Source: an uncultured Bacteroidota bacterium
GTDB taxonomy: Bacteria; Bacteroidota; Bacteroidia; Flavobacteriales_D; Parvicellaceae
DNA: 41,610 bases
Direction: 5' to 3'
NCBI GenBank assembly: GCA_902536695.1
Contig: CACAYQ010000008.1
Span: forward strand, 1 to 41,610
Below, piece after piece: positions 11,828-23,884 of the stretch. The first letter of the stretch is position 1, and each line of letters opens with the position of its first letter. The position numbers and the translations under genes are program-made. The notes under the pieces are model-generated. The model did not search any database. It worked only from the letters and a program-made list of their open reading frames with translations, and had not been told where the DNA came from.

Positions 11828-12325
11828 TTAGGTTTTATTTTTGATTCTGTTGTTGGCATAAAAAGCCAATATAAACGTAATTGGGTATAAAATTGATTGA
11901 ACAAAATGACTTAGCTCAATAGCCACAGCATAAATATGTGGGTCTTTATTTAAAGAATCATATAAAATGTAAAATAGTATTGATGAAATCATAATAATAA
12001 GTCCACCCACGATGAATGTTTTCTTAAACTCATTATACATTTCTTTTTGCCACAATATTTTGGTGAAAAAAAGCCCAATTGCAAAGAAAATAAATGAAAA
12101 TAGTAAAGCTAAAACCCACTTTAAATTAGCGATAGTAGAAGAACTAAGTGAATTAATGAATAATAGCACGGTTGAATCCGTGTAATTAGTGGCATCTAAG
12201 TCCAACGACTTGTAATGTAAAAATTGCATTTGAAGATTAAAATTCACAAAAATATAATCCCTTATAAATTCAAAAAAAATACCAAAAATGATTAGGAGGA
12301 ATAAAATTGTTTTATTTTTCGTCAA
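11828..12325 (-). CDS. Exosortase-associated integral membrane protein
   Basis: This 165-residue protein has about four membrane helices (near residues 8-25, 65-90, 103-123 and 138-158). No enzymatic motif is visible. Its start overlaps the stop of the exosortase gene by 4 bp, and Bacteroidota exosortases (XrtF/XrtX-type) are regularly paired with a small membrane protein of this size and topology that has no known function. That pairing, rather than any motif, supports the name. It is followed by glyA after 29 bp. It may be a cofactor or chaperone of the sorting enzyme, which is inference. Confidence 0.65.
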
Positions 12326-12855
12326 GAGTTTGTGAATTTTTTAATAAAAAATAACCAGAGCAATAACATAGCTGAATAGATAATTATTTGAAATGTAATG
12401 TTATGATTGAAGTCTAATATTTTTGGATTTACAGCAGCTATATATGTTAATGAGGCCACTCTCATTACATTTAATAAGTGAAGAATGAATATACCAATAG
12501 GGATAAAAATAAGTTTGAAGAACAATCTGCTCTTTAAACAAAAAGTAAAAATTCCAAAAACACCAAATATTTTAATACCATTACAAGGCTCTCCAATCCA
12601 AACTCCATGTTGAAACTCATAATCTAAAATTTTTGATACCACCATATCTCCTTGAATTTCTATGCTTGTTTTGAAACCAAATAATTCCAGTAAAATATTA
12701 GCTTGACTAGCAAGGGTGATAGAAAATGATTCTATAAAGTCATTTTCTTGAAATAAAGGAATTTCATAAATTAGATGGTAAAAGACGAACCAACCAGTTA
12801 TTAAAGGAATAAATATAGCAAGGAAATTTGCTGATGGGTTTAATTTTTTAATCAA
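12322..12855 (-). CDS. Exosortase/archaeosortase-family transpeptidase
   Basis: This is a 177-residue polytopic membrane protein with about five hydrophobic segments. It carries the three catalytic residues of the exosortase family in the right order: Cys91 in GEPCNG, Arg132 in LLNVMRVAS, and His151 in DFNHNITFQ. Exosortases recognise a short C-terminal sorting signal, cut it at the membrane and probably transfer the protein to another molecule. The size fits the short Bacteroidota types (XrtF/XrtX-like) rather than the longer EpsH type. It overlaps its upstream neighbour, a 63-residue PID-CTERM-like protein, by 4 bp, and its downstream membrane partner by 4 bp. Exosortases often lie next to exopolysaccharide loci, as here. 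The exact subtype is uncertain. Confidence 0.85.
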   Translation of the reverse strand: MIKKLNPSANFLAIFIPLITGWFVFYHLIYEIPLFQENDFIESFSITLASQANILLELFGFKTSIEIQGDMVVSKILDYEFQHGVWIGEPCNGIKIFGVFGIFTFCLKSRLFFKLIFIPIGIFILHLLNVMRVASLTYIAAVNPKILDFNHNITFQIIIYSAMLLLWLFFIKKFTNS

Positions 12856-13043
12856 TGAGTTGATTTATTGTAAAATTTATAGCCTAAATAGGCTGCTAGA
12901 AGGGTAAAAACACCAATACCTCCGTCTATGGGTATACATGGTGGTGGCCAACAAAAAGGAGGACTTGGACCTCCGGGTGGTCCTTGCGAGAATAGAGATA
13001 CACAAGGAAGTAATATTAATGTAACTAACAGAAGTCTTTTCAT
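12852..13043 (-). CDS. PID-CTERM-like mini-protein, predicted exosortase substrate
   Basis: This 63-residue protein has a tripartite layout. It starts with a signal peptide (KRLLLVTLILLPCVSLFSQ), continues with a very short Pro/Gly/Cys-rich segment (GPPGGPSPPFCWPPPC), and ends in a sorting-signal-like region: the PID motif in IPIDGG, a hydrophobic helix (VFTLLAAYLGYKF) and a short polar, basic end. After signal cleavage and sorting only about 20 residues would remain. The PID-CTERM pattern is known from small Bacteroidota proteins. The gene overlaps the exosortase gene by 4 bp, which makes a substrate-enzyme pair likely. An overlapping ORF in another frame (12877-13080) lacks these features and is a shadow. 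Confidence 0.75.
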   Translation of the reverse strand: MKRLLLVTLILLPCVSLFSQGPPGGPSPPFCWPPPCIPIDGGIGVFTLLAAYLGYKFYNKSTH

Positions 13044-13132
13044 TAAGCACCAAAAATATGTTTTTATTTATTTTAAACATTATGTTTATGTTAAAATTAG
13101 ATATTTGTAATTCAAAAATTGAATAACTACTG
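13044..13132. promoter_or_regulatory. Divergent intergenic region between the exosortase operon and the polysaccharide locus
   Basis: This 89-bp, very AT-rich gap separates the minus-strand exosortase/glyA run from the plus-strand wzc-led locus. It is the only non-coding space available upstream of both, so promoters for both directions probably lie here or in the flanking coding sequence. Near-matches to the Bacteroidota -7 element (TAnnTTTG) are TATGTTTA at 13081-13088 on the plus strand and TATTTTTG on the minus strand (13051-13058). Neither has a convincing -33 TTG at the usual distance, so exact sites are not assigned. Confidence 0.4.
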
Positions 13133-15520
13133 ATGAATAATCAAAAATCAAATAATATTATTTCATCCAATGATTTGATTTGGCTATTAAATGCTATTCT
13201 AAAAAATTGGTATTTATTTTTGATAATAGTACCTATTTTTGCTGTAGTTGGTTTTATTTATAATCATAAACAGGTACAACAATTTAATACAAAAATTGAA
13301 ATATTACTTAAAAGTAATGATGTGTATGATTACCAAGAAAACTTATACAATAATTTAGGTTTTTACAATTATTATGGAGATATATCAAACCAGCGCAGAA
13401 TTTTGGGTTCTTATGATATGATGCAAAAGGTGCTAACACGCCTAGACCTTTCTTGTTCTTATTTTATTGTTGGAAGACTAAATACTAAAGAATTCTTCAA
13501 TGAACTTCCTTTCAAGGTTGATGCAAAAGTTTTTAATCCTTATCTCTACGAGTTGCCTATTGATTTTAAAATTCTAGATAATAAACGTTATGAGCTTTCA
13601 TATACTCTTAATGAAAAAAACATAAAACAAATTCATTATTTTGATTCTCTTGAAACCACTACTGCATATTCGATAAATACAAAACTAAATGCAGTTTTAG
13701 ATACTGAAAGAGTTAAAAATCTTTCTGAAATCAACTATCGAATCGTAATGCACGATGATAGTTATTGGGTAAATAGAATTATTTCCAATTTATCTATTGA
13801 AAATATTGAATTTACCTCCTTGATAGTAATTGATCTTTTAGATGAAATACCTGAAAGATCACAAATGGTGCTTGATACATTGGCAAGTCAATATATACAG
13901 TATACGCTCGAAAATCAATTTCGAATTAATCAAAATACAATGACCTACATCAACTATCAAATTGAAGATGTTGTTGATATCATTGACTCTATTCAGTTTG
14001 AATTGCAAAATATGAGAGATAAAAAAGGAATTTTAGATGTGGATAAAGAGTCAGAAAAATATTTCCAGTCACTAATGCAACATGAGGCATCAAAGCGAAA
14101 AATTAAATTAAAAATAAAATCATTAGAAAATCTTAAATTATACCTTTCTAAGGTAAATGACGAAAATATTCTACCTCCTTCTCTGTATGTGATGAGTAAT
14201 GATCAATACTTGTCTAATTCTATAAATGATTTTTATGAAAATCAATTAAAAAAAATGGAAATGACGCACGGTTTTAAAAAAGGGCATCAAGAATTAGAAA
14301 AAATAAATGAGAAGATCATTAACCAAAGAAAAGACCTTTTAGTTTACATTCAAAATACCATATCAGCACTAGATTCCGAAATATTAATTGAAGAAAATGA
14401 GATTAATTATTACGAATCTTTAGTGAAAAAAATGCCTCTTTCCGAAAGAGACTTGGCATCCATTCAAAGAAAATTACAGGTAAATGAAAAACTTTATGAA
14501 TTTTTATTGGAAAAAAGAGCTAACACTTTCATTGCAAAGTCTGGTATTGTTCCGCAGACCAAGGTCATTGAAAAGGCAAGAACAGTTGGAATAGTGGGGG
14601 GTAAAGACAATATGATGGTTTTTATTTTTATTTCTACTGGCTTTTTGATCTCTATACTTATTTCGGTTCTGATAAGGATATTTTTTGAAAAAATTTCTCA
14701 ACTAAAAGAATTAAGTGATTTAACCAATATACCCATATTAGGTGGGTTGCCATTTTTAAAAAACTTTCAGTCTATTTTAGATATTAAGATAAAATCTAAA
14801 GATAACTTTGTAGAATCACTAAGATCAATTAGAACCTCTATGAATTTCTTGATGAATAATAATTCTATTGATAAAAATGAATTTAAATCTTTTTTAATCA
14901 CCTCAATTCATCCTGGAGAGGGAAAAACATTTACCACCTTAAATTTAGCCAGGATATTTGCTAGTTCTGGTAAAAAGGTATTAGTAGTTGACTTCGATAT
15001 GCACAAACCGAAAGTACATAAAGAGTTGGGCTTGGACAATTCTGTTGGAAACTCTACAAACTTATCTGCTAAAACAAACATTGATAAATCAACAATTGAA
15101 TTGGAAAAAGACTTATTTGTAATTCCAAGCGGACCAGTTCCTCCTAATCCATCTGAGTTGGTGCTGTCAAAGAAAGTTAAAGAGTTATTTAATTATGCAG
15201 AAAAAAAATTCGACTACATTTTTATTGATACACCTCCAATAGGCTACATTACTGATGCATTGGTATTATCTTCGATTGTTGATCATTCCATATTTGTTAT
15301 GAATACTAAATTCGCAAACAAGAAAGGCCTAACGTTTTTGAATGATATTATTGATAGATCCAACATTAATAGTAATGCTATAATATTAAACGGTGTTAAA
15401 AAAAATAGATTTAAATATTATTACGGAAGATACGGATACGGATACGGATACGGATACGGATACGGATATGGATACGGAAAAGGATATGCTTATGGTAAAG
15501 ATTATGACTATGTACAATAA
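13133..15520 (+). CDS. Wzc-type polysaccharide co-polymerase and tyrosine autokinase with (Tyr-Gly)n tail
   Basis: This 795-residue inner-membrane protein controls chain length and export of surface polysaccharide. It has an N-terminal Wzz domain after a membrane helix at about residues 22-42, long coiled periplasmic helices, and a second helix near 490-512. The cytoplasmic BY-kinase domain carries Walker A (HPGEGKT, about 592-598), Walker A' (VLVVDFDMHKP) and Walker B (FIDTPP). The C-terminus ends in a tyrosine cluster with 15 Tyr in the last ~35 residues, mostly as eight consecutive Tyr-Gly pairs, the expected autophosphorylation site of this kinase class. It is the first gene of the plus-strand polysaccharide locus and overlaps the next gene. 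No cognate phosphatase or OPX/Wza exporter is in view. Confidence 0.93.
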   Translation: MNNQKSNNIISSNDLIWLLNAILKNWYLFLIIVPIFAVVGFIYNHKQVQQFNTKIEILLKSNDVYDYQENLYNNLGFYNYYGDISNQRRILGSYDMMQKVLTRLDLSCSYFIVGRLNTKEFFNELPFKVDAKVFNPYLYELPIDFKILDNKRYELSYTLNEKNIKQIHYFDSLETTTAYSINTKLNAVLDTERVKNLSEINYRIVMHDDSYWVNRIISNLSIENIEFTSLIVIDLLDEIPERSQMVLDTLASQYIQYTLENQFRINQNTMTYINYQIEDVVDIIDSIQFELQNMRDKKGILDVDKESEKYFQSLMQHEASKRKIKLKIKSLENLKLYLSKVNDENILPPSLYVMSNDQYLSNSINDFYENQLKKMEMTHGFKKGHQELEKINEKIINQRKDLLVYIQNTISALDSEILIEENEINYYESLVKKMPLSERDLASIQRKLQVNEKLYEFLLEKRANTFIAKSGIVPQTKVIEKARTVGIVGGKDNMMVFIFISTGFLISILISVLIRIFFEKISQLKELSDLTNIPILGGLPFLKNFQSILDIKIKSKDNFVESLRSIRTSMNFLMNNNSIDKNEFKSFLITSIHPGEGKTFTTLNLARIFASSGKKVLVVDFDMHKPKVHKELGLDNSVGNSTNLSAKTNIDKSTIELEKDLFVIPSGPVPPNPSELVLSKKVKELFNYAEKKFDYIFIDTPPIGYITDALVLSSIVDHSIFVMNTKFANKKGLTFLNDIIDRSNINSNAIILNGVKKNRFKYYYGRYGYGYGYGYGYGYGYGKGYAYGKDYDYVQ
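15431..15478 (+). repeat. Hexanucleotide tandem repeat (TACGGA)8 coding for Tyr-Gly
   Basis: There are eight hexamers in a row: six perfect TACGGA units, one TATGGA, then one more TACGGA. They lie in frame at the 3' end of the wzc gene and encode eight Tyr-Gly pairs. Because the unit is six bases, gain or loss of copies keeps the frame and only changes the number of tyrosines. A nearby degenerate unit (TACGGAAGA at 15422) suggests the array was once longer or is eroding at the edge. Confidence 0.95.
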
Positions 15521-18500
15521 TATCAGAAAGTATATTTTTAAAAAACTTATTGCAGTTTTTTTAAATGGATTTCTTTTTGCTTCTGCATTTTCTCAAAATG
15601 ATGGTCCAGCAGGAGTTTCAAATAGTTCATCACTACAAGTTTGGCTTGATGCAGCCAATATAACGCTAAATGATACGGATCCAATACCTCAATGGGGTGA
15701 CTCCTCTGGAAATAATAACCATTTTACTCAACCCAGTGCATCATTTCAACCCGAACTTAGAACGAGTTCAATTATAAATGGTTCACCTGGAGTACGATTT
15801 GTTAACGATTTTATGTATTCTCCTTCAATATCTAATCTTGAAACTAATAATTTATCTTGGGTAATTGTTTATAAAACAACATATCAATATTTTCAAGTTT
15901 TGATGAGATCTAGTTATGATTTCGGGGCTTCAGATGAAGCTGGGTCAAATACATTTTGGGGTTCGTATACAAACACATCTTCAATTAATTTAACTTCTTC
16001 AATTCGTAATTCAGATAATACATTCCAATCCATAAATACCAATGTAGGTACAAATACTAATATTTCCACTACCATTGTCAAAAACGCTACAAGTTTCAGT
16101 TTATATAATAATGGATCTCTAATATCAAGTATTGCTGGTAATAATGCAACACCTAGCAACCACAAATGGGTTACACTAGGGTCTAATTCAAATACTATTG
16201 CAAATAGTTACTATCCTTTCATTGGATACATCTCAGAAGTTCAAATTTATAATGAATCACTAAATGATGCTAAGCGTATTATTCTTGATAATTATTTAAG
16301 CGCCAAATACAATGTTTCTATTGGGCTGACAGATAAGTTTTCTTACGATTTAACTCATGGAAATGAACTTGCCGGAATTGGTAGGGAAGATGCAAGTAAT
16401 GAACATTTAGATGCAAAGGGTGAAAGTATTTACAGAATTGTGGCAACAAGTTTAGATAATGGAGATTACTTATTGTGGGGCCATGATGGTGCTCCTCTTA
16501 CTCCCACATCTACAGGTGTACCTACTTCATTTAATGCACTTGGAAGAATTCTCCAAAGAGTGTGGAGATTTGAAGAGACTGGCGAGACAGGAGACCTAAC
16601 TTTTCAAATTGATGTAACTGAATATGGATTTGGGTCTTTAGACTATTATAAGTTATTAATTGATGATGATGGTGATTTTACATCTGGCGCAACTGTAATA
16701 GATGGTACAAATACCACCGGTAATGAAATTGAATTTACTGTTCCTTCATCTAGTCTTAGTAACGGAAATTTTGTTACGATTGGACATATGACAACTGAAA
16801 TAATATCCGTTAGCTCAACTGCTTGGGATAATAATTCAACTTGGAATTGCTCATGTGTTCCCACGTCAGCAAATGATGTAACAGTTGATCATGCAGTAAC
16901 TCTATCAACTCCTTCAGTAGCTAAATCTTTAACGATTTCAAGCGCAGGTTCACTTGCCCTATCAAATGTGATTGATGTTGATTCTAACATAACTAATCAA
17001 GGGACAATAACATCTTCAGGTTCAAGAATTTTTATAGGAGGAAGCTGGGATAACTCAAGTGGTTCTTACACTTACTCCGCTGGTGACTCAGTTACATTTG
17101 ATGGTTCTACTCCTTCCACAATTACTGGTGACACGGATTGGAGTATTTTAACGTTGGATAATATTTCAGGAGTAAGTGTGTCTTCGGGTACTCAAAATAT
17201 CTTTCAAAGATTAAATATTAAATCCGGGACTCTAACAACAAATAACAATATTGTACTTGTTTCAAATGCGTCAGGTACAGCTATGTTAGATAATATTGAA
17301 AGTGGGTCAATATCTGGTTCGATGACTGTTCAAAGATATTTAAATTTAGGACCACAAGGGTGGAGAGATATTACCTCACCAGTTCAAGGTTCAACGATTT
17401 TAGATTGGCAAAACAGTGGAATAATTTTCTCAGGATTCAATGGTTCCACATTCCCGTCTTTTGGGGCGGTTAATGCTTATACTTACGACGAGACACAGGT
17501 AGGGTCGATCAATCTAGGCTGGACAGCAGTGAATGACGTTACTAATCCTACTGGTCCAACTAGTGCACATCGAGTTTTTATGGATTCCAATGTGACTTAC
17601 ACGCTTTCAGTCACAGGTGTACCTTACTCTGGAAATACTGTTTTAAATCTAGATTTAACAGGTGTTTCTAATAATGATAATGGATGGAATTTTGTGGGAA
17701 ATCCTTACCCTTGTACAGTCAATTGGAGTAAAATTTCTAAAAATAATGTTGAAAATAAGTATTGGGTTTGGAACGCGACTGTAGGTAATTATGGTACTTG
17801 GAATGGTGCAACAGGAACACATGATGTAAGTGATTTAATTCCTAGCTCACAGGGTTTTTGGGTTCATGCAACATCTTCTGCCCCATCATTAACATTTAAC
17901 GAAGACGATAAGTCATCAACAGATAAAGCATTTATCAAAAGCGGTGCGATAAATTCTAACCTGAGAATTAGATTAACAAATGATATGAATTTATTTGCTG
18001 ATGAGGTTGTGCTTGCATTTGATAGTAATTCAAGTATTCAATACGACGTTGGGTTAGATGTAATAAAAAAATTTACTGAAAATTTAGACTACGCCCCATC
18101 TTTATTTTTTATGACGGATGATAGTGTAAACCTATCTATATCCTATCTAAATGAAGATTTTAATAATGAAATATATATTAGTGCAGTTCCAGGAATCTTA
18201 GCTCAAGGCAATTACAGTTTAAATTTTGATATTTCTGAAACTTTTTATGAATCTGGTTGTCTTTTTTTAACGGATTTGTATAACGATAGCCTTATTGATT
18301 TAAGATTAAATAATAATTATAATTTTAATTCTGCTGATACAACTTTAGAAAATAGATTTAGATTAGAGTTCATTAAAAATTTTCAAGCTTCCTCAACACC
18401 ACCTAGCTGTTATCAATCTGATGATGGAAGTGTAACGCTAAGTGGTGATTCTCTTGCTGGTAAAATTTTTAGTTTGTCAGATTTCAATGGAAACATATTG

Positions 18501-19160
18501 TCATCAAAAACTGCCATCACAAATCAATTAACTTTTGATAGTCTTTACAGTGGAAATTATATTGTTTCTTCCAATTTTAGTTCAAATTGTAGCATTGATA
18601 CTGACTCCATAATTATCGCAGAATCTCACATATTAATTCCTGGTTTCAATATTTCTTCAGATTCTGTTATTATTGGTAATAGCCCAATAACGCTAGGATT
18701 TAATAATAGTTCTGTAGGTGCTAATTCGTTTGTATGGGATTTTGGAAATGGGCATAGCTCTGCAGATGAAAACCCAACTTCTACATACTTCAGTACTGGA
18801 AATTATGAAATCAAACTGACTGCTATTGACACCAATTATAATCATTGTATTTATGAAGAAAACAAAACACTAATTATTTCTGATTCCGTAGTCGTTTCAA
18901 TAGAAGAATCAGATTTTTTAACTGATGTTCAAGTATCTTTTGAAGTAAATAATTTAATTATAAAAACTGATTATGACGATGACTTAACTTTTACTTTATA
19001 TAACCTTTTAGGGCAGACAATTTTCAGAGAAAGGTTTAATGGTAAAAGAAATGTTTATTTAATAAATACTGGAGGTTATTTTATGAGAAATCAAATTTAT
19101 ATTTTTAATATTTCCAATGATACAAATGAGTCAAAATCTATAAAAATTATTAAATATTGA
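15504..19160 (+). CDS. Large secreted multidomain protein with T9SS C-terminal sorting domain
   Basis: The protein has about 1,218 residues. A signal peptide (KKLIAVFLNGFLFASAFSQ) precedes a LamG/concanavalin-like region (to about 272). A domain with AGIGREDASNEHLDAKG (about 275-425) follows, of a type common in T9SS proteins. Next come a beta-rich Ser/Thr region (about 430-595), a stretch with GWNFVGNPYPCTVNW (about 610-800), a PKD-like domain with FVWDFGNGHSS (about 1040-1125), and a C-terminal domain with LTFTLYNLLGQTIF that fits type IX secretion sorting. The frame is open from 15393, but ATGs at 15486, 15492, 15504 and 15510 are nearer the signal peptide; I chose 15504. Either way it overlaps wzc. 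It is probably exported to the cell surface; its role there is unknown. Confidence 0.82.
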   Translation: MTMYNNIRKYIFKKLIAVFLNGFLFASAFSQNDGPAGVSNSSSLQVWLDAANITLNDTDPIPQWGDSSGNNNHFTQPSASFQPELRTSSIINGSPGVRFVNDFMYSPSISNLETNNLSWVIVYKTTYQYFQVLMRSSYDFGASDEAGSNTFWGSYTNTSSINLTSSIRNSDNTFQSINTNVGTNTNISTTIVKNATSFSLYNNGSLISSIAGNNATPSNHKWVTLGSNSNTIANSYYPFIGYISEVQIYNESLNDAKRIILDNYLSAKYNVSIGLTDKFSYDLTHGNELAGIGREDASNEHLDAKGESIYRIVATSLDNGDYLLWGHDGAPLTPTSTGVPTSFNALGRILQRVWRFEETGETGDLTFQIDVTEYGFGSLDYYKLLIDDDGDFTSGATVIDGTNTTGNEIEFTVPSSSLSNGNFVTIGHMTTEIISVSSTAWDNNSTWNCSCVPTSANDVTVDHAVTLSTPSVAKSLTISSAGSLALSNVIDVDSNITNQGTITSSGSRIFIGGSWDNSSGSYTYSAGDSVTFDGSTPSTITGDTDWSILTLDNISGVSVSSGTQNIFQRLNIKSGTLTTNNNIVLVSNASGTAMLDNIESGSISGSMTVQRYLNLGPQGWRDITSPVQGSTILDWQNSGIIFSGFNGSTFPSFGAVNAYTYDETQVGSINLGWTAVNDVTNPTGPTSAHRVFMDSNVTYTLSVTGVPYSGNTVLNLDLTGVSNNDNGWNFVGNPYPCTVNWSKISKNNVENKYWVWNATVGNYGTWNGATGTHDVSDLIPSSQGFWVHATSSAPSLTFNEDDKSSTDKAFIKSGAINSNLRIRLTNDMNLFADEVVLAFDSNSSIQYDVGLDVIKKFTENLDYAPSLFFMTDDSVNLSISYLNEDFNNEIYISAVPGILAQGNYSLNFDISETFYESGCLFLTDLYNDSLIDLRLNNNYNFNSADTTLENRFRLEFIKNFQASSTPPSCYQSDDGSVTLSGDSLAGKIFSLSDFNGNILSSKTAITNQLTFDSLYSGNYIVSSNFSSNCSIDTDSIIIAESHILIPGFNISSDSVIIGNSPITLGFNNSSVGANSFVWDFGNGHSSADENPTSTYFSTGNYEIKLTAIDTNYNHCIYEENKTLIISDSVVVSIEESDFLTDVQVSFEVNNLIIKTDYDDDLTFTLYNLLGQTIFRERFNGKRNVYLINTGGYFMRNQIYIFNISNDTNESKSIKIIKY

Positions 19161-19201: not shown

Positions 19202-20194
19202 ATGGCAAAAGATAAAATTTTTGTAACTGGTTCAGATGGTTTTATTGGTAGTCATCTTGTTGAAGAATTAATAATTCAAGGCTTTAGGGTAAAAACTTTA
19301 TGTCAATATAATTCATTTAATTCATGGGGGTGGTTAGATTCTTTTTCTGAAGATCAATTAAATAAAATAGAAATTGTCAGTGGAGATATTCGTGACTTTA
19401 ATGGAATAAAGAGTTTAATGCAAGGTTGCGATTCAGTTATGCATTTAGCTGCTTTAATAGCAATACCTTATTCATACAGCTCACCTGAGAGTTACATTGA
19501 TACCAATGTTAAAGGAACTTTAAATGTGGTTCAAGCTGCAAGAGATTTAAATTTGAAAAGAGTTCTTATTACATCCACATCTGAAGTATATGGAACAGCT
19601 CAATATGTTCCAATTGATGAAAAGCATCCTAAGCAACCACAGTCTCCTTATTCAGCATCTAAAATAGGAGCAGATAGCATTGCCGAATCTTTTTATAATT
19701 CTTTTGATTTGCCAGTAACAATTGTAAGACCTTTTAATACTTATGGGCCAAGACAATCAGCAAGGGCTATAATTCCTACTATTATTACTCAATTATTAAA
19801 CGGTGCTAAAAAAATCAAATTAGGAGATTTAACTCCAACAAGAGATTTGCTTTTTGTAAAAGATACGGTCAGAGGTTTTATAGATATTTATAATTGCAAT
19901 GAATTAATAGGTCATGAATGTAATATTGCAACAAATTCTGAAGTATCTATGCAAAAAATTGCAGATACTCTCATTAAATTAATAAATAAAGATGCTGAAG
20001 TTACTTCCGATTTAGATAGAATTCGCCCTGAAAAATCCGAAGTTTTCAGGTTAATTGGTGATAATGCTAAAATTTTAAATTACACTAAATGGAGGGTTGA
20101 GCATAGCTTGGAAGAAGGCCTTAAAAAAACTGTTGATTGGTTTTCAGATTCAACTAATTTAAAACATTACAAATTTAGTATTTACAATGTATAA
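19202..20194 (+). CDS. legB: LegB-type NAD-dependent nucleotide-sugar 4,6-dehydratase
   Basis: This 330-residue extended short-chain dehydrogenase has the NAD-binding TGSDGFIGSH at the N-terminus, the catalytic Ser/Thr in TSTSEVYG, the YSASK Tyr-Lys pair, and a conserved RPFNTYGPRQSARAIIP. This set is typical of LegB, which turns UDP- or GDP-GlcNAc into the 4-keto-6-deoxy sugar that starts legionaminic-acid-type synthesis. The next gene, a LegC-type aminotransferase, overlaps its stop by 8 bp and acts on its product. A gap of 41 bp separates it from the T9SS-type gene. Whether it uses a UDP- or GDP-sugar is not visible; the PtmE-like gene downstream hints at GDP. Confidence 0.9.
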   Translation: MAKDKIFVTGSDGFIGSHLVEELIIQGFRVKTLCQYNSFNSWGWLDSFSEDQLNKIEIVSGDIRDFNGIKSLMQGCDSVMHLAALIAIPYSYSSPESYIDTNVKGTLNVVQAARDLNLKRVLITSTSEVYGTAQYVPIDEKHPKQPQSPYSASKIGADSIAESFYNSFDLPVTIVRPFNTYGPRQSARAIIPTIITQLLNGAKKIKLGDLTPTRDLLFVKDTVRGFIDIYNCNELIGHECNIATNSEVSMQKIADTLIKLINKDAEVTSDLDRIRPEKSEVFRLIGDNAKILNYTKWRVEHSLEEGLKKTVDWFSDSTNLKHYKFSIYNV

Positions 20195-21329
20195 TGAGCT
20201 TTCTAAATTTATAAGAAAACATTTTAATCAAGAACAAGGTTTAATACCTATTCACCGTCCATTGTTTAATGGAAATGAAAAAAAATACATAATAGATGCT
20301 ATAGATTCAACTTATGTTTCTTCTGTAGGTTCATATGTTAATCAATTAGAGGAAAAAATTTGTACATACACGGACTCTAAATATGCTGTTGCGGTTGTTA
20401 ACGGGACAAATGCTCTTCATCTTTCTTTAATAGTTGCAGGTGTCAGGGAAGGAGATGAGGTGATTACTCAACCTTTAACTTTTGTTGCTACTGCAAATGC
20501 TATTTCTTATTGTAGAGCAATTCCCCACTTTGTAGATGTGGATAAAGATACATTAGGTTTATCACCAACTATATTGAAAGACTACTTAAAAGAAACTGCT
20601 CAAATTAAGGATGGTTTTTGTTACAATAAAAAAACTGGAAACAGAATCTCAGCTTGTGTTCCGATGCATACTTTTGGCTTGGCATTATATATTGATGAAG
20701 TAGTTGAAATATGTAATGAATACAACATTAAAGTTATTGAAGATGCAGCTGAATCTTTAGGTACACTTTATAAAAACAAGCATACAGGCACTTTTGGGTT
20801 AATGGGGGTTTTTAGTTTTAATGGTAATAAAATAATTACATCTGGAGGAGGAGGGGTTATAGTTACAAATGATAAAAACTTAGCTCAGCAAGCAAAGCAC
20901 TTGAGTACTCAGGCAAAAATTGATCACAAATGGGAATATTCGCACGACTTGCTTGGATATAATTACAGAATGCCAAATATTAATGCTGCATTATTATGTG
21001 CACAGATGGAAAATCTGGAGGTTTTCATTGAAAATAAACGAAATCTTTCAGATTTATATTTTGATTTTTTTTCTGATTTTGATAATGTGATTTTAGTTAG
21101 AGAAATAAAGGAGTCAAGATCAAATTATTGGTTGAATAGCTTATTATTGGAAGATTTGGATGAAAGAAATAATTATTTAAAATATTTAAACGATCAAAAT
21201 ATTATGTCTCGACCAGTATGGAGTCTAATTAATAATTTAGATATGTACAAACAATGTCCTAAAAGTGATTTAAGTAATTCGATGTGGTTAGAGAAAAGGC
21301 TTATAAATATTCCAAGTAGCGTATGTTAA
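20187..21329 (+). CDS. legC: LegC-type PLP-dependent nucleotide-sugar aminotransferase
   Basis: This is a 380-residue DegT/DnrJ/EryC1-family aminotransferase. Visible marks are the N-terminal PIHRPLFNGNEKKYI, NGTNALHLSL for PLP phosphate binding, IEDAAESLG with the Asp that contacts the PLP ring nitrogen, and FNGNKIITSGGGG with the PLP lysine. It should install the amino group at C4 of the LegB product. The gene order legB-legC with an 8-bp overlap, then a NeuD-type acetyltransferase at a 7-bp overlap, supports that step. The length is usual for LegC. Confidence 0.9.
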   Translation: MYNELSKFIRKHFNQEQGLIPIHRPLFNGNEKKYIIDAIDSTYVSSVGSYVNQLEEKICTYTDSKYAVAVVNGTNALHLSLIVAGVREGDEVITQPLTFVATANAISYCRAIPHFVDVDKDTLGLSPTILKDYLKETAQIKDGFCYNKKTGNRISACVPMHTFGLALYIDEVVEICNEYNIKVIEDAAESLGTLYKNKHTGTFGLMGVFSFNGNKIITSGGGGVIVTNDKNLAQQAKHLSTQAKIDHKWEYSHDLLGYNYRMPNINAALLCAQMENLEVFIENKRNLSDLYFDFFSDFDNVILVREIKESRSNYWLNSLLLEDLDERNNYLKYLNDQNIMSRPVWSLINNLDMYKQCPKSDLSNSMWLEKRLINIPSSVC

Positions 21330-21964
21330 ATAAAAGAGATAAGATTTGTATTGTTGGAACAGGAGGTTTTGCAAGAGAAGTATTTCAAATTATTAAAGAA
21401 AATTTAAAAAAGCTAAACATCAACCCATTTGAAGTTTGTTTTTTTTTAGTTAGAGATGATGAATTTACTAACAAGGAAGTGTATGGCGTGAAGACACTTC
21501 CTGAATCAGAATTTAATGAAGATATACATGAGTTAGTTCTTGCAGTTGGCGATCCAGTTTTGAAAAAAGCACTTTACGAAAAATTTGCTAGATCTGTTGT
21601 TTATCCAAATATTATTAGTCAGCATGCTTTACTTTCTGATTATGTTTCATTAGGTTTTGGTGTTATTATTTGTCAAGGTGTAGTAATTACATGTGATATT
21701 GAAATAGGAAATCATGCTCATATAAATTTAAATTCAACTATAGGTCATGATTGTAATATTGGTGATTTTTTCACTTGTTCTCCTGGTGTAAATATAAGTG
21801 GAAATTGTACCATTTCAGATCAAGTTTACATAGGTAGTTCAGCAGTTATTAAGCAAAATATAAAAATATGTAATAACACTATCATAGGCATGGGAAGTGT
21901 TGTTGTTAAAGACATCAATCATAGTGGGACATATGTTGGAAATCCATTAAGAAAATTAAAGTGA
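21323..21964 (+). CDS. NeuD-type sugar O-/N-acetyltransferase (left-handed beta helix)
   Basis: The protein has 213 residues. An N-terminal nucleotide-binding-like PglD_N segment (CIVGTGGFAREVFQII) is followed by hexapeptide repeats forming a left-handed beta helix, with the catalytic His in STIGHDCNIGDF. In nonulosonic-acid pathways members either N-acetylate the 4-amino sugar (LegH/PglD role) or O-acetylate the final sugar (NeuD role). Its place right after legC favours N-acetylation, which is an inference from context. It overlaps legC by 7 bp and the following GT2 gene by 4 bp. Confidence 0.85.
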   Translation: MLNKRDKICIVGTGGFAREVFQIIKENLKKLNINPFEVCFFLVRDDEFTNKEVYGVKTLPESEFNEDIHELVLAVGDPVLKKALYEKFARSVVYPNIISQHALLSDYVSLGFGVIICQGVVITCDIEIGNHAHINLNSTIGHDCNIGDFFTCSPGVNISGNCTISDQVYIGSSAVIKQNIKICNNTIIGMGSVVVKDINHSGTYVGNPLRKLK

Positions 21965-22854
21965 AAAAGGTATGTTTTGTAAGTGTTGTTCATCAAAATA
22001 ATGAGGATTTTTTAGTTGATTTTTTTAATTCTTTAAGGGCACAGTCTTTTAAATATTTTGAAGTAATTTTATTTAATGATGGCTGTGATAATAATAACCT
22101 AATTAAACTTAGTAAAGGTTTAAATATTACAATTTTTGATGTAAAAGGATCCCCTAATGAGATTAGAAATGAAATGATTTTATTTCTAATAGAATCTGAT
22201 TTTGAATATTGTGTTTTTGGAGATGCTGATGATTTTTTTGAAAAAAACAGGATAGAAGAAAATATTAATTTTTTAAGTAATTACGACATTGTAGTAAATG
22301 ATGTTCATTTAGTAAATAGCGAAGGAGAGTTAATAAAGAAGAATTATTTTTCAAATAGGTTGTATAATCGATCAATAATTGACTTTGATTTTATTCTTGA
22401 CAAAAATATTTTTGGATTAGGTAATACAGCTATAAGAACTAATGTTTTGTGTGAAAGTTTATTGGTTTCATCATCCATAGTAGCTGTTGATTGGTATGTT
22501 TTTTCAAAAATTCTATATGTAACTAAACCCAGAGCCATTTTTATTAATACTAGTTCCATTTTTTACAGACAATATTATGGGAATATGATAGGACTTAGTA
22601 AATTGAGTTTAGAAAAAGTCAGATTTGTAGTCAATGTCAAAATAGAACATTATAAATATTTGTCTCCTTTAGATAACGTTTTTAAAAACAAACTAAATAA
22701 GTATTCAAGATTAAATTCTTTTTTAGAAAACAATGAAAATGCGCGAGTTTATCTTGATAAAACAAAAAACACAGATAAAAAATGTTTTTTTTGGTGGGAA
22801 GAAGCTATTTTAATAGAAGAATTCAACTATGAAAGTACAAATAACTTCAAATAA
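21961..22854 (+). CDS. Family 2 (GT-A) glycosyltransferase
   Basis: This 297-residue protein starts with GTG inside the stop region of the acetyltransferase gene (4-bp overlap). The N-terminal fold KKVCFVSVVHQNNEDFL and the later VILFNDGCDNN fit a GT2 nucleotide-sugar-binding domain, and FGDADDFFEKN supplies the D-x-D metal motif. The C-terminal part is poorly conserved. It sits inside the nonulosonate genes, between the acetyltransferase and the NeuB-type synthase, and its 3' end overlaps the synthase by 26 bp. Donor and acceptor cannot be predicted. The product is probably a cytoplasmic enzyme acting at the inner membrane on the lipid-linked repeat unit. Confidence 0.8.
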   Translation: MKKVCFVSVVHQNNEDFLVDFFNSLRAQSFKYFEVILFNDGCDNNNLIKLSKGLNITIFDVKGSPNEIRNEMILFLIESDFEYCVFGDADDFFEKNRIEENINFLSNYDIVVNDVHLVNSEGELIKKNYFSNRLYNRSIIDFDFILDKNIFGLGNTAIRTNVLCESLLVSSSIVAVDWYVFSKILYVTKPRAIFINTSSIFYRQYYGNMIGLSKLSLEKVRFVVNVKIEHYKYLSPLDNVFKNKLNKYSRLNSFLENNENARVYLDKTKNTDKKCFFWWEEAILIEEFNYESTNNFK

Positions 22855-23884
22855 AGAAATTTTCAACTTTTGCTCTCCTTATATTATTGCTGAAATTGGG
22901 GCTAATCATAATGGCGATATGGATTTAGCTAAGTCTATGATTGATGCTGCATATGATTCAGGTTGTAATGCTGTTAAATTCCAATCATGGACACCTGAAT
23001 CACTAATTTGCGAACAAGAATATAATAATAATCAAGTTTATAATGATTCCCCTAAAAAACATTTTGGATCATTAAGAGAAATGGTTAATAAATATTATTT
23101 AAGAGATGATCAGCACTTTGAATTAAAAATATATTGTGATTCAATTGGGATTGATTTTTTGTCAACTCCGTTTTCAAATGAAGAGGCAGATTTGTTACAT
23201 AAAGTTGGCATTCCTTTTTATAAAGTTGCTTCAATGGATATTAACAATTATAGGCTATTAAAATATTTAGCAAAATTTCAAAAACCTATTGTTTTATCCA
23301 CAGGTATGTCTACAATTTCTGAAATTGATAAAGCCATTAAAATTATTGAATCTGAAAATAATTACAATATTGTTTTATTGCATTGCATTTCAATATATCC
23401 TCCTAAATATGAAGATATTCATTTAAATAACATTAACATGTTATATGAGACATTTGGATATCCAGTAGGTTTTTCAGATCATAGTATTGGCTTTTCTATA
23501 CCTCTAGCGGCTATTGCAAAAGGGGCTTGTATAATTGAAAAGCACTTCACAATTGATAAAAACCTACCAGGATGGGATCATGAAATTTCTGCTGATCCAA
23601 ATGAAATGAAAATAATTTGTCGTGAAGGAAGAAATATATCATCCTCCTTAGGTGGGAAAATAAGAATTGTATCTAAGGAAGAAGAATTAAAAAAAATAAA
23701 ATTTAGAAGAAGTGCTGTAGCCTCAAGAGATTTAAAAAAAGGAGAAATAATTCATGAAAATGATGTTTTATTTAAGAGACCAGGGAGTGGGATTGGTCCA
23801 GAATTAGAAGGATTACTTATAGGAAGAAAATTAAGCGAAGATCTTAAAAAAGACGAATTATTTTCTTTAGATAATCTTGAATAG
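22829..23884 (+). CDS. neuB: Nonulosonic-acid (legionaminic/sialic-type) synthase, NeuB family with SAF domain
   Basis: This 351-residue enzyme condenses a 6-carbon amino sugar with phosphoenolpyruvate to give a nonulosonic acid. The NeuB barrel keeps all key marks: Glu22 in AEIGANHNGD, Lys50 in VKFQ, STPF at 112-115, STGMS, and the metal histidines His218 in SDHS and His239 in EKHFT. The C-terminal SAF/antifreeze-like domain (FRRSAVASRDLKKGE onward, from about 292) supplies the Arg that contacts the substrate. In this context it probably acts as LegI on a 2,4-diacetamido sugar. It starts within the GT2 gene (26-bp overlap) and is followed closely by the cytidylyltransferase gene. Confidence 0.92.
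   Translation: MKVQITSNKEIFNFCSPYIIAEIGANHNGDMDLAKSMIDAAYDSGCNAVKFQSWTPESLICEQEYNNNQVYNDSPKKHFGSLREMVNKYYLRDDQHFELKIYCDSIGIDFLSTPFSNEEADLLHKVGIPFYKVASMDINNYRLLKYLAKFQKPIVLSTGMSTISEIDKAIKIIESENNYNIVLLHCISIYPPKYEDIHLNNINMLYETFGYPVGFSDHSIGFSIPLAAIAKGACIIEKHFTIDKNLPGWDHEISADPNEMKIICREGRNISSSLGGKIRIVSKEEELKKIKFRRSAVASRDLKKGEIIHENDVLFKRPGSGIGPELEGLLIGRKLSEDLKKDELFSLDNLE

What the first reader, a model, noticed from the sequence alone, without database searches (positions are those of the whole stretch)
11828..13043. Compact exosortase cassette with a 63-residue PID-CTERM-like partner
Three overlapping or closely spaced genes encode a mini-protein with signal peptide, Pro/Cys-rich linker and PID plus helix, an exosortase with Cys91/Arg132/His151, and a small membrane partner. 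After both processing steps the substrate would be only about 20 residues long (Gly/Pro-rich, two cysteines). That is too small for a usual surface protein, and suggests a peptide tag, a polysaccharide anchor or a signalling peptide. The biology of such dedicated mini-substrates is poorly known.
Basis: partly seen in the sequence, partly recalled or inferred. Interest (0 to 1): 0.65.

Follow-up and report, generated by a model that had tools for sequence, protein, structure and literature searches.

The report
Exosortase cassette with one mini-substrate
A marine Flavobacteriales bacterium carries a three-gene cassette in which a membrane enzyme is predicted to trim one tiny dedicated secreted peptide of about 20 residues; the same cassette sits beside a sugar-polymer export gene in many Bacteroidota, is known only as computer-built family models, and has no experimentally known function.

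Summary
Three minus-strand genes (11828-13043), joined by 4-nt TTGA overlaps, encode a 63-aa signal-peptide/PID-helix microprotein, a 177-aa exosortase (C91, R132, H151 invariant in 44 homologues) and a 165-aa membrane partner. All three score best to NCBIfam's XrtX/PID-CTERM set (exosortase 112.7 bits, cut-off 170; partner 21.3, cut-off 75; microprotein 9.3, cut-off 26), so the window copy is a divergent member below every curated cut-off; some relatives pass.

The microprotein is real and dedicated. It precedes the exosortase in 78 of 80 loci from a public genome scan (two cut at contig ends). It occurs in 37 of 44 XrtX+ genomes and 0 of 34 XrtX- genomes, usually once. dN/dS is 0.04-0.24. 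Mature length to the PID Asp is 18-30 residues in 66 of 71 that have Gln at the predicted new N-terminus, almost always with two cysteines. A Wzc-type polysaccharide kinase lies divergently next door in 68 of 101 loci.

Best reading (inferred): XrtX cleaves at PID and delivers a short, end-blocked, Cys-bridged peptide to a surface or exported-polysaccharide acceptor. No held paper mentions PID-CTERM. Known kind, unusually clean one-substrate system; biology untested.

The parts
12852..13043 (-). 63-aa PID-CTERM-type microprotein (signal peptide, Pro/Gly/Cys stretch, PID motif, helix, Lys-containing tail)
   Evidence: ORF; profile-supported family of 47 aligned homologues; dN/dS 0.04-0.24 in close pairs, 0.18 against the nearest relative
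12987..13043 (-). Predicted signal peptide, residues 1-19, with Gln20 as the new N-terminus (Bacteroidetes Q-rule)
   Evidence: Gln at the predicted cleavage site in 71 of 73 minis; Q-rule paper PMC5837995; cleavage itself not shown
12924..12986 (-). Predicted mature peptide, residues 20-40: QGPPGGPSPPFCWPPPCIPID, two cysteines in CWPPPC
   Evidence: Invariant P34, C36, P38, D40 (and G42 just after); C31 and Q20 nearly invariant; C(x)nC before PID in 95 of 103 distinct minis
12855..12923 (-). Predicted removed tail, residues 41-63: GG, hydrophobic helix, basic end
   Evidence: Tail after the PID Asp is 22-31 residues in all 73 minis; K56 nearly invariant
12322..12855 (-). Exosortase, 177 aa, XrtX-like; C91 (12583-12585), R132 (12460-12462), H151 (12403-12405)
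   Evidence: NCBIfam XrtX 112.7 bits, generic exosortase signature TIGR04178 41.4 bits, above its cut-off 23; catalytic residues invariant in 44 homologues; AlphaFold2 mean pLDDT 94.7
11828..12325 (-). XrtX-associated membrane protein, 165 aa, all-helical
   Evidence: NCBIfam NF046082 21.3 bits, E=1.7e-4, below cut-off 75; homologue directly after the exosortase in nearly all loci; AlphaFold2 mean pLDDT 95.8
13044..13132 (.). 89-bp divergent intergenic region between the microprotein and wzc
   Evidence: Sequence; same divergent arrangement in 68 of 101 loci
13133..15520 (+). Wzc-type polysaccharide tyrosine autokinase with a C-terminal (Tyr-Gly)n tail; linked neighbour, not part of the cassette proper
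   Evidence: NCBIfam TIGR01007 156.7 bits, above cut-off 108; conserved divergent neighbour; co-occurrence 97/10/8/84 genomes

Best explanation
This is a dedicated exosortase system of the XrtX/PID-CTERM kind whose only usual substrate is the neighbouring microprotein. Shown computationally: gene triad, invariant Cys/Arg/His, conserved PID-helix-basic tail, a constant 18-30-residue mature region with two cysteines, one substrate per genome as a rule, genetic linkage to a Wzc-type polysaccharide export kinase. Inferred: (1) Sec and signal peptidase I release the N-terminus at Gln20, which cyclises to pyroglutamate by the Bacteroidetes Q-rule; (2) the C-terminal helix holds the protein in the inner membrane with PID at the periplasmic face; (3) C91 of the exosortase attacks near PID-GG and passes the peptide to an acceptor, with the third protein as a membrane accessory; (4) the acceptor is a component of the polysaccharide (or its lipid carrier) handled by the neighbouring Wzc pathway, so that a short, protease-resistant, end-blocked, disulfide-bridged peptide ends up on the cell surface or on the exported glycan, probably for adhesion or retention of the polymer. 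Steps 1-3 I hold as likely (about 0.75); the polysaccharide acceptor in step 4 as plausible (about 0.4).
For: All three proteins score best to XrtX-set NCBIfam models, and relatives in the same synteny pass the cut-offs of XrtX and PID_CTERM (182.9 and 41.5 bits). Catalytic residues invariant. Mini immediately upstream of xrt in 78 of 80 loci of a public-genome scan; minis in 37 of 44 XrtX+ and 0 of 34 XrtX- genomes, one copy in 34 of 37. Mature length, Gln and Cys statistics. Purifying selection. Divergent wzc and co-occurrence of this Wzc subfamily with XrtX. Precedents: exosortases sit in polysaccharide loci (PMC1569441); the related XrtF and its partner protein are needed for biofilm and surface colonisation in Flavobacterium johnsoniae (PMC10936215); cyanoexosortase B is needed for adhesion to polysaccharide (PMC12188702).
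Against: No translated or processed product has been seen. The window proteins fall below every XrtX-set curated cut-off. One clade keeps XrtX and its partner but has neither an adjacent mini nor an adjacent wzc, and no substrate was found there. Seven f3 genomes have the Wzc subfamily without XrtX, so Wzc does not need the peptide. Wzc linkage is less constant outside the order. In Methylobacillus, loss of EpsH did not stop exopolysaccharide production (PMC1569441). Co-occurrence statistics are not corrected for shared ancestry.
Confidence: 0.62

Rival explanations
1. Signalling peptide: the exosortase cuts the microprotein and the 20-30-residue cysteine-bridged peptide is released as a pheromone that tunes polysaccharide production.
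For: Very short conserved product, single copy, adjacent to its processing enzyme and to a regulatory kinase; a blocked N-terminus and a small disulfide loop would suit an extracellular peptide.
Against: The core CWPPPC-IPID is nearly unchanged across many families of the class, whereas pheromones that confer specificity usually diversify between relatives; no conserved receptor or sensor gene appeared among the neighbour families that recur around the cassette; exosortases are associated with surface and polysaccharide functions in the papers read.
Confidence: 0.12
2. Regulatory or structural membrane microprotein: the mini is a small partner subunit that stays in the membrane and stabilises or regulates the exosortase or Wzc, and is not cleaved at PID.
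For: Strict adjacency and translational coupling to the exosortase; nearly invariant D40, G42 and K56 could be contact residues.
Against: The tripartite tail (motif, helix, basic end) is the hallmark of sortase-type substrates (PMC3237569); longer Cys-rich proteins with the same PIDGG tail stand in the same position in five loci, as expected of cargo rather than of a subunit.
Confidence: 0.13
3. It is really an XrtF-type system (the Flavobacterium johnsoniae kind) rather than XrtX.
For: The exosortase scores 68.7 bits to XrtF; relative L056 passes the XrtF cut-off (99 against 90) but not XrtX (149.7 against 170).
Against: XrtX is the better score for window and relatives; in the tree the clear XrtF sequences form a separate group (support 0.996 for the group with its low-scoring members) and have no adjacent mini. 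Deep branches are weakly supported.
Confidence: 0.08
4. Not a gene: the 63-aa ORF is a chance reading frame.
For: Short ORF, no significant curated profile hit of its own.
Against: Conserved sequence and position in dozens of genomes, dN/dS well below 1.
Confidence: 0.01

Closest known systems
XrtX / PID-CTERM / XrtX-associated membrane protein (NCBIfam NF046081, NF046080, NF046082)
   Same: Same gene order, best-scoring models for all three proteins, PIDGG-helix-basic tail, invariant Cys/Arg/His.
   Different: Window proteins score below the curated cut-offs (112.7/170, 9.3/26, 21.3/75). The window mini lacks the GGKKAYD-like end of the tail typical of the family. NCBIfam models only the 25-residue tail, while here the whole mature peptide is conserved.
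XrtF and exosortase F system-associated protein of Flavobacterium johnsoniae (TIGR04128, TIGR04127; PMC10936215)
   Same: Bacteroidota exosortase followed by a small membrane partner; both genes needed for biofilm and surface colonisation there.
   Different: Separate group in the tree, no adjacent PID microprotein in the four sequences well above the XrtF cut-off, targets stated to be unknown.
XrtA/EpsH with PEP-CTERM (TIGR02602, TIGR02595; PMC1569441)
   Same: Cys/Arg/His membrane enzyme, C-terminal motif-helix-basic signal, linkage to polysaccharide chain-length genes.
   Different: Many unrelated larger PEP-CTERM cargo proteins per genome (median eight) against one microprotein here; larger enzyme; different motif.
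Dedicated one-target sorting systems (rhombosortase/GlyGly-CTERM and sortase examples, PMC3237569)
   Same: When a genome has one target, enzyme and target genes tend to be adjacent.
   Different: Unrelated rhomboid or sortase enzymes and ordinary-sized targets.

Membership tests
Exosortase/archaeosortase superfamily | Hit to the signature model TIGR04178 above its cut-off | tested here: met
   41.4 bits against 23
Exosortase/archaeosortase superfamily | Invariant Cys, Arg and His in a multi-helix membrane protein | tested here: met
   C91, R132, H151 invariant in 44 sequences; confident helical model
Exosortase/archaeosortase superfamily | Cleaves and/or transfers its substrate | not testable with these tools
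   Needs biochemistry
XrtX (NF046081) | Score above the curated cut-off of 170 bits | tested here: not met
   112.7 bits, best of all exosortase models; relative L067 reaches 182.9
XrtX (NF046081) | Gene neighbour bearing a PID-CTERM tail | tested here: met
   Adjacent and overlapping mini in the window; 78 of 80 related loci
XrtX (NF046081) | Followed by the XrtX-associated membrane protein (NF046082, cut-off 75) | tested here: inconclusive
   21.3 bits, E=1.7e-4, only family with a significant hit; 20 of 28 homologues hit at E<=0.001
XrtX (NF046081) | Groups with XrtX and apart from XrtF and XrtY in a tree | tested here: inconclusive
   XrtF and XrtY sequences fall in groups separate from the window lineage, but deep branches have weak support
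PID-CTERM (NF046080) | Score above the curated cut-off of 26 bits | tested here: not met
   9.3 bits, E=1; 43 of 47 aligned homologues hit the model at E<=1, two passing relatives at 41.5 and 35.7 bits
PID-CTERM (NF046080) | P-I/V-D-G-G, hydrophobic helix, basic C-terminus after an N-terminal signal peptide | tested here: met
   Sequence and alignment A1
XrtF (TIGR04128) | Score above the cut-off of 90 bits | tested here: not met
   68.7 bits
PEP-CTERM/XrtA | Pro-Glu-Pro motif and several targets per genome | tested here: not met
   Motif is Pro-Ile-Asp; one mini in G000

The most novel reading that the evidence does not exclude
The exosortase makes a peptide-capped or peptide-anchored polysaccharide: a ribosomally made, pyroglutamate-blocked, disulfide-bridged peptide of 18-30 residues, nearly unchanged across Bacteroidota, is transferred through its PID end onto the glycan or lipid carrier of the neighbouring Wzc pathway, so that the peptide itself, not a protein cargo, is the product of the system.
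Probability: 0.3. Interest if true: 0.8.

Novelty: new member of a known kind. Interest (0 to 1): 0.48.

Why it matters
What exosortases do to their substrates in Gram-negative bacteria, and what acceptor they use, is still unsettled in the papers read. A system with one substrate per genome whose predicted product is about 20-30 residues is a very convenient case for finding the cleavage site and the attached group by mass spectrometry. Carriers that are named strains exist (Crocinitomix algicola, C. catalasitica, Pontibacter harenae). The constant mature sequence, not only the tail, suggests that the peptide itself is the functional product, and links the system to polysaccharide export.

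Tried and rejected
Chance ORF: rejected by conservation and dN/dS. Wzc as a universal partner: rejected, since f3 genomes have the Wzc without XrtX and one XrtX clade has no adjacent Wzc. Wzc plus mini always travelling together: mostly true, with exceptions (G044, G100, G184). Substrate of the clade without an adjacent mini (f9 genera g37, g45, g46, g33): pattern and profile searches in fetched loci and whole genomes found none. Solved-structure relatives by sequence or fold: none for the exosortase or the partner. Literature: no held paper contains 'PID-CTERM'; hits for 'XrtX' were unrelated words; Haft 2012 is not held, so points from it are not used. Pfam gave only a sub-threshold EpsH hit and a doubtful Otopetrin hit for the partner, which I do not use.

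Full report
WHAT IS THERE. The window (marine Flavobacteriales assembly, 1.7 Mb, 62% complete) holds three overlapping minus-strand genes at 11828-13043. The first gene, 12852-13043, encodes MKRLLLVTLILLPCVSLFSQGPPGGPSPPFCWPPPCIPIDGGIGVFTLLAAYLGYKFYNKSTH. The second, 12322-12855, encodes a 177-aa exosortase; the third, 11828-12325, a 165-aa membrane protein. Both junctions are TTGA overlaps in which the TTG start of the next gene overlaps the TGA stop of the previous one. The gene facing away on the plus strand, 13133-15520, is a Wzc-type polysaccharide tyrosine autokinase, separated by 89 bp, followed by a cluster with a LegB-type dehydratase, an aminotransferase, a NeuB-family synthase and a glycosyltransferase. 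'Marine Flavobacteriales' rests on the titles of the nearest records, not on a name for the window itself.

FAMILY ASSIGNMENT. NCBIfam gives, as best hits, exosortase X for the enzyme (112.7 bits, cut-off 170), XrtX-associated membrane protein for the partner (21.3, cut-off 75) and PID_CTERM for the mini (9.3 bits, E=1, cut-off 26). Every one is below its cut-off; only the generic exosortase signature passes (41.4, cut-off 23). Relatives in the same gene order do pass: L067 scores 182.9 to XrtX and 41.5 to PID_CTERM; L056 scores 35.7 to PID_CTERM but 149.7 to XrtX and 99 to XrtF (cut-off 90). So the boundary between the XrtX and XrtF models runs close to this family's lineage. All 44 aligned exosortases hit XrtX, best E 6.6e-59; 43 of 47 minis hit PID_CTERM at E<=1, best 4.4e-12; 20 of 28 partners hit NF046082 at E<=0.001. 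In a FastTree tree of 83 sequences the XrtF and XrtY reference sequences fall in groups separate from the window lineage, but deep branches are weak.

IS THE MINI REAL, AND DOES IT BELONG TO THE EXOSORTASE? Exosortase homologues were found in 105 of 199 genomes of the order. A single-sequence search with the mini in 100 relatives found it in 42, at places next to the exosortase. A regular-expression search next to 101 exosortase loci found a mini in 73; at least one more locus (L121) holds one that the first pattern missed. In a separate scan of GTDB contigs with the exosortase alignment, 78 of 80 loci have a mini directly upstream of the exosortase, and the other two begin at a contig end (some of these genomes are the same as, and the scan's seed pattern favours the FNH motif). 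A profile from the minis, searched in 78 genomes, hit 37 of 44 XrtX-positive and none of 34 XrtX-negative genomes; copy number was one in 34 and two in three (the window mini is part of that profile, so its own hit there is by construction, and the first look scored at most 75 candidates per genome). NG86 dN/dS between close pairs was 0.04-0.24 for the mini, similar to the exosortase, and 0.18 between the window and its nearest relative, where dS is already 1.3. The mini is therefore a translated-type gene under strong constraint; translation itself was not observed.

ANATOMY OF THE PREDICTED PRODUCT. Across 73 minis, 71 have a Gln preceded by A/G/S/C/P after a hydrophobic stretch, the Bacteroidetes Q-rule signature (PMC5837995). 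From that Gln to the PID Asp there are 18-30 residues in 66 of 71; five are longer (44-80) and Cys-rich. Exactly two Cys occur in 66 of 71. The tail after the Asp is 22-31 residues in all 73. In alignment A1 the invariant positions in window numbering are P34, C36, P38, D40, G42, with Q20, P23, C31, G41 and K56 nearly invariant. In 103 distinct minis, including a class-wide sample, 95 have C(x)nC just before PID and 65 have C[WFI]xPxC. Exceptions exist: Pontibacter harenae (L233) has a Gly-rich, Cys-free version. In ordinary sorting systems the cargo varies and only the tail is shared (as described for PEP-CTERM, PMC1569441); here the cargo is as conserved as the tail, so the peptide itself is probably the product. 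That last step is inference. Presence of the glutaminyl cyclase in this genome was not tested.

NEIGHBOURHOOD. Clustering of neighbours in 41 larger loci (most about 20 kb) shows, apart from the triad, one outstanding family: Wzc, in 37 of 41 loci and always on the opposite strand. Over 101 loci it lies divergently within 4 kb in 68; most exceptions with a mini are contig ends or have a large T9SS-type protein in between, with G044, G100 and G184 as true exceptions. In the contig scan 62 of 80 loci show the divergent Wzc inside the fetched flank (counted from its listing). A high-scoring Wzc subfamily (E<=1e-98 with the window Wzc) is present in 97 of 105 XrtX-positive and 10 of 94 XrtX-negative genomes (table 97/10/8/84, Fisher p about 1e-34, not corrected for ancestry). 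Seven of the ten are one family (f3) that has this Wzc with no XrtX. One clade (f9 genera g37, g45, g46, g33) has XrtX and partner beside other genes, mostly no adjacent Wzc and no detectable mini; its substrate is unknown. Across the class XrtX matches 58 of 149 sampled genomes at E<=1e-30, mostly with an adjacent mini.

STRUCTURE. AlphaFold2 gives confident models for the exosortase (mean pLDDT 94.7, pTM 0.88) and the partner (95.8, 0.86). Neither has a significant match in the PDB by sequence or by fold, so no solved relative is available. Distances between C91, R132 and H151 could not be read from the tool.

MECHANISM. Shown: the genes, their conservation, the linkage. Inferred from established knowledge of the Sec/SPI pathway, the Q-rule and the exosortase model (PMC1569441): signal peptidase I exposes Gln20, which becomes pyroglutamate; the C-terminal helix leaves PID at the membrane surface; C91 cleaves near PID-GG and hands the peptide to an acceptor. 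The acceptor is my weakest step. The Wzc linkage, the XrtF phenotype in F. johnsoniae (biofilm and colonisation loss on deleting xrtF or its partner gene; PMC10936215) and the adhesion defect of a cyanoexosortase mutant (PMC12188702) point to the surface polysaccharide. Against this, EpsH was dispensable for exopolysaccharide production in Methylobacillus (PMC1569441), so the peptide may tether or decorate the polymer and not be needed to make it.

VERDICT. The cassette is a divergent member of a computationally defined, experimentally untouched set (XrtX/PID-CTERM); no held open-access paper mentions PID-CTERM (subscription papers are mostly not held). That makes it an attractive test case for exosortase chemistry. 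Interest 0.48: not a new kind of system, but a clean handle on an open question.

Noticed in passing
15393-15520: The linked Wzc ends in a (Tyr-Gly)n tail encoded in part by hexanucleotide repeats; nearly all complete Wzc of this subfamily, also those without XrtX (f3, L182-L184), share it, with differing repeat number. Repeat slippage would change the number of tyrosines in frame.
   Followed up: partly
15393-19160: The listed 1255-aa ORF overlaps wzc by reading the same repeat in another frame (TDTDTD...); its true start is probably after 15520. It has PKD domains and a weak T9SS C-terminal signal below cut-off.
   Followed up: partly
19202-23884: Nonulosonic-acid-type genes: LegB-type 4,6-dehydratase (above cut-off), DegT aminotransferase, PglD-like acyltransferase, NeuB-family synthase, in the polysaccharide cluster next to the cassette.
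   Followed up: no
L082, L083, L125-L129, L131, L135-L139, L141, L143-L145: XrtX and partner without a detected PID microprotein or adjacent Wzc; in the two loci inspected closely (L082, L083) the upstream gene resembles adenosylhomocysteinase. Substrate unknown.
   Followed up: partly
L134, L142, L147, L149, L151: Longer Cys-rich PIDGG substrates (about 44-80 mature residues by the Q heuristic, up to 12 Cys) in place of the mini, possibly a related product with more disulfides.
   Followed up: partly
L174, L175 (G100), and G118 and G168: Genomes with two PID microproteins; in G100 both lie far from the exosortase.
   Followed up: partly
L060, L085, L086, L091, L189, L190, L192: A large secreted protein (about 800-1190 aa, several with T9SS-like ends) lies directly upstream of the mini or the exosortase on the same strand, between the cassette and wzc where wzc is near.
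   Followed up: no
L228 and L230: One assembly (UBA4466 isolate FRAM18_bin218) carries two XrtX cassettes; the wzc beside the first is split into three frames.
   Followed up: no
L249, L257, L270: Metagenome bins titled Chryseobacterium gleum carry this cassette in the same form as unnamed Flavobacteriales; the species label looks doubtful.
   Followed up: no
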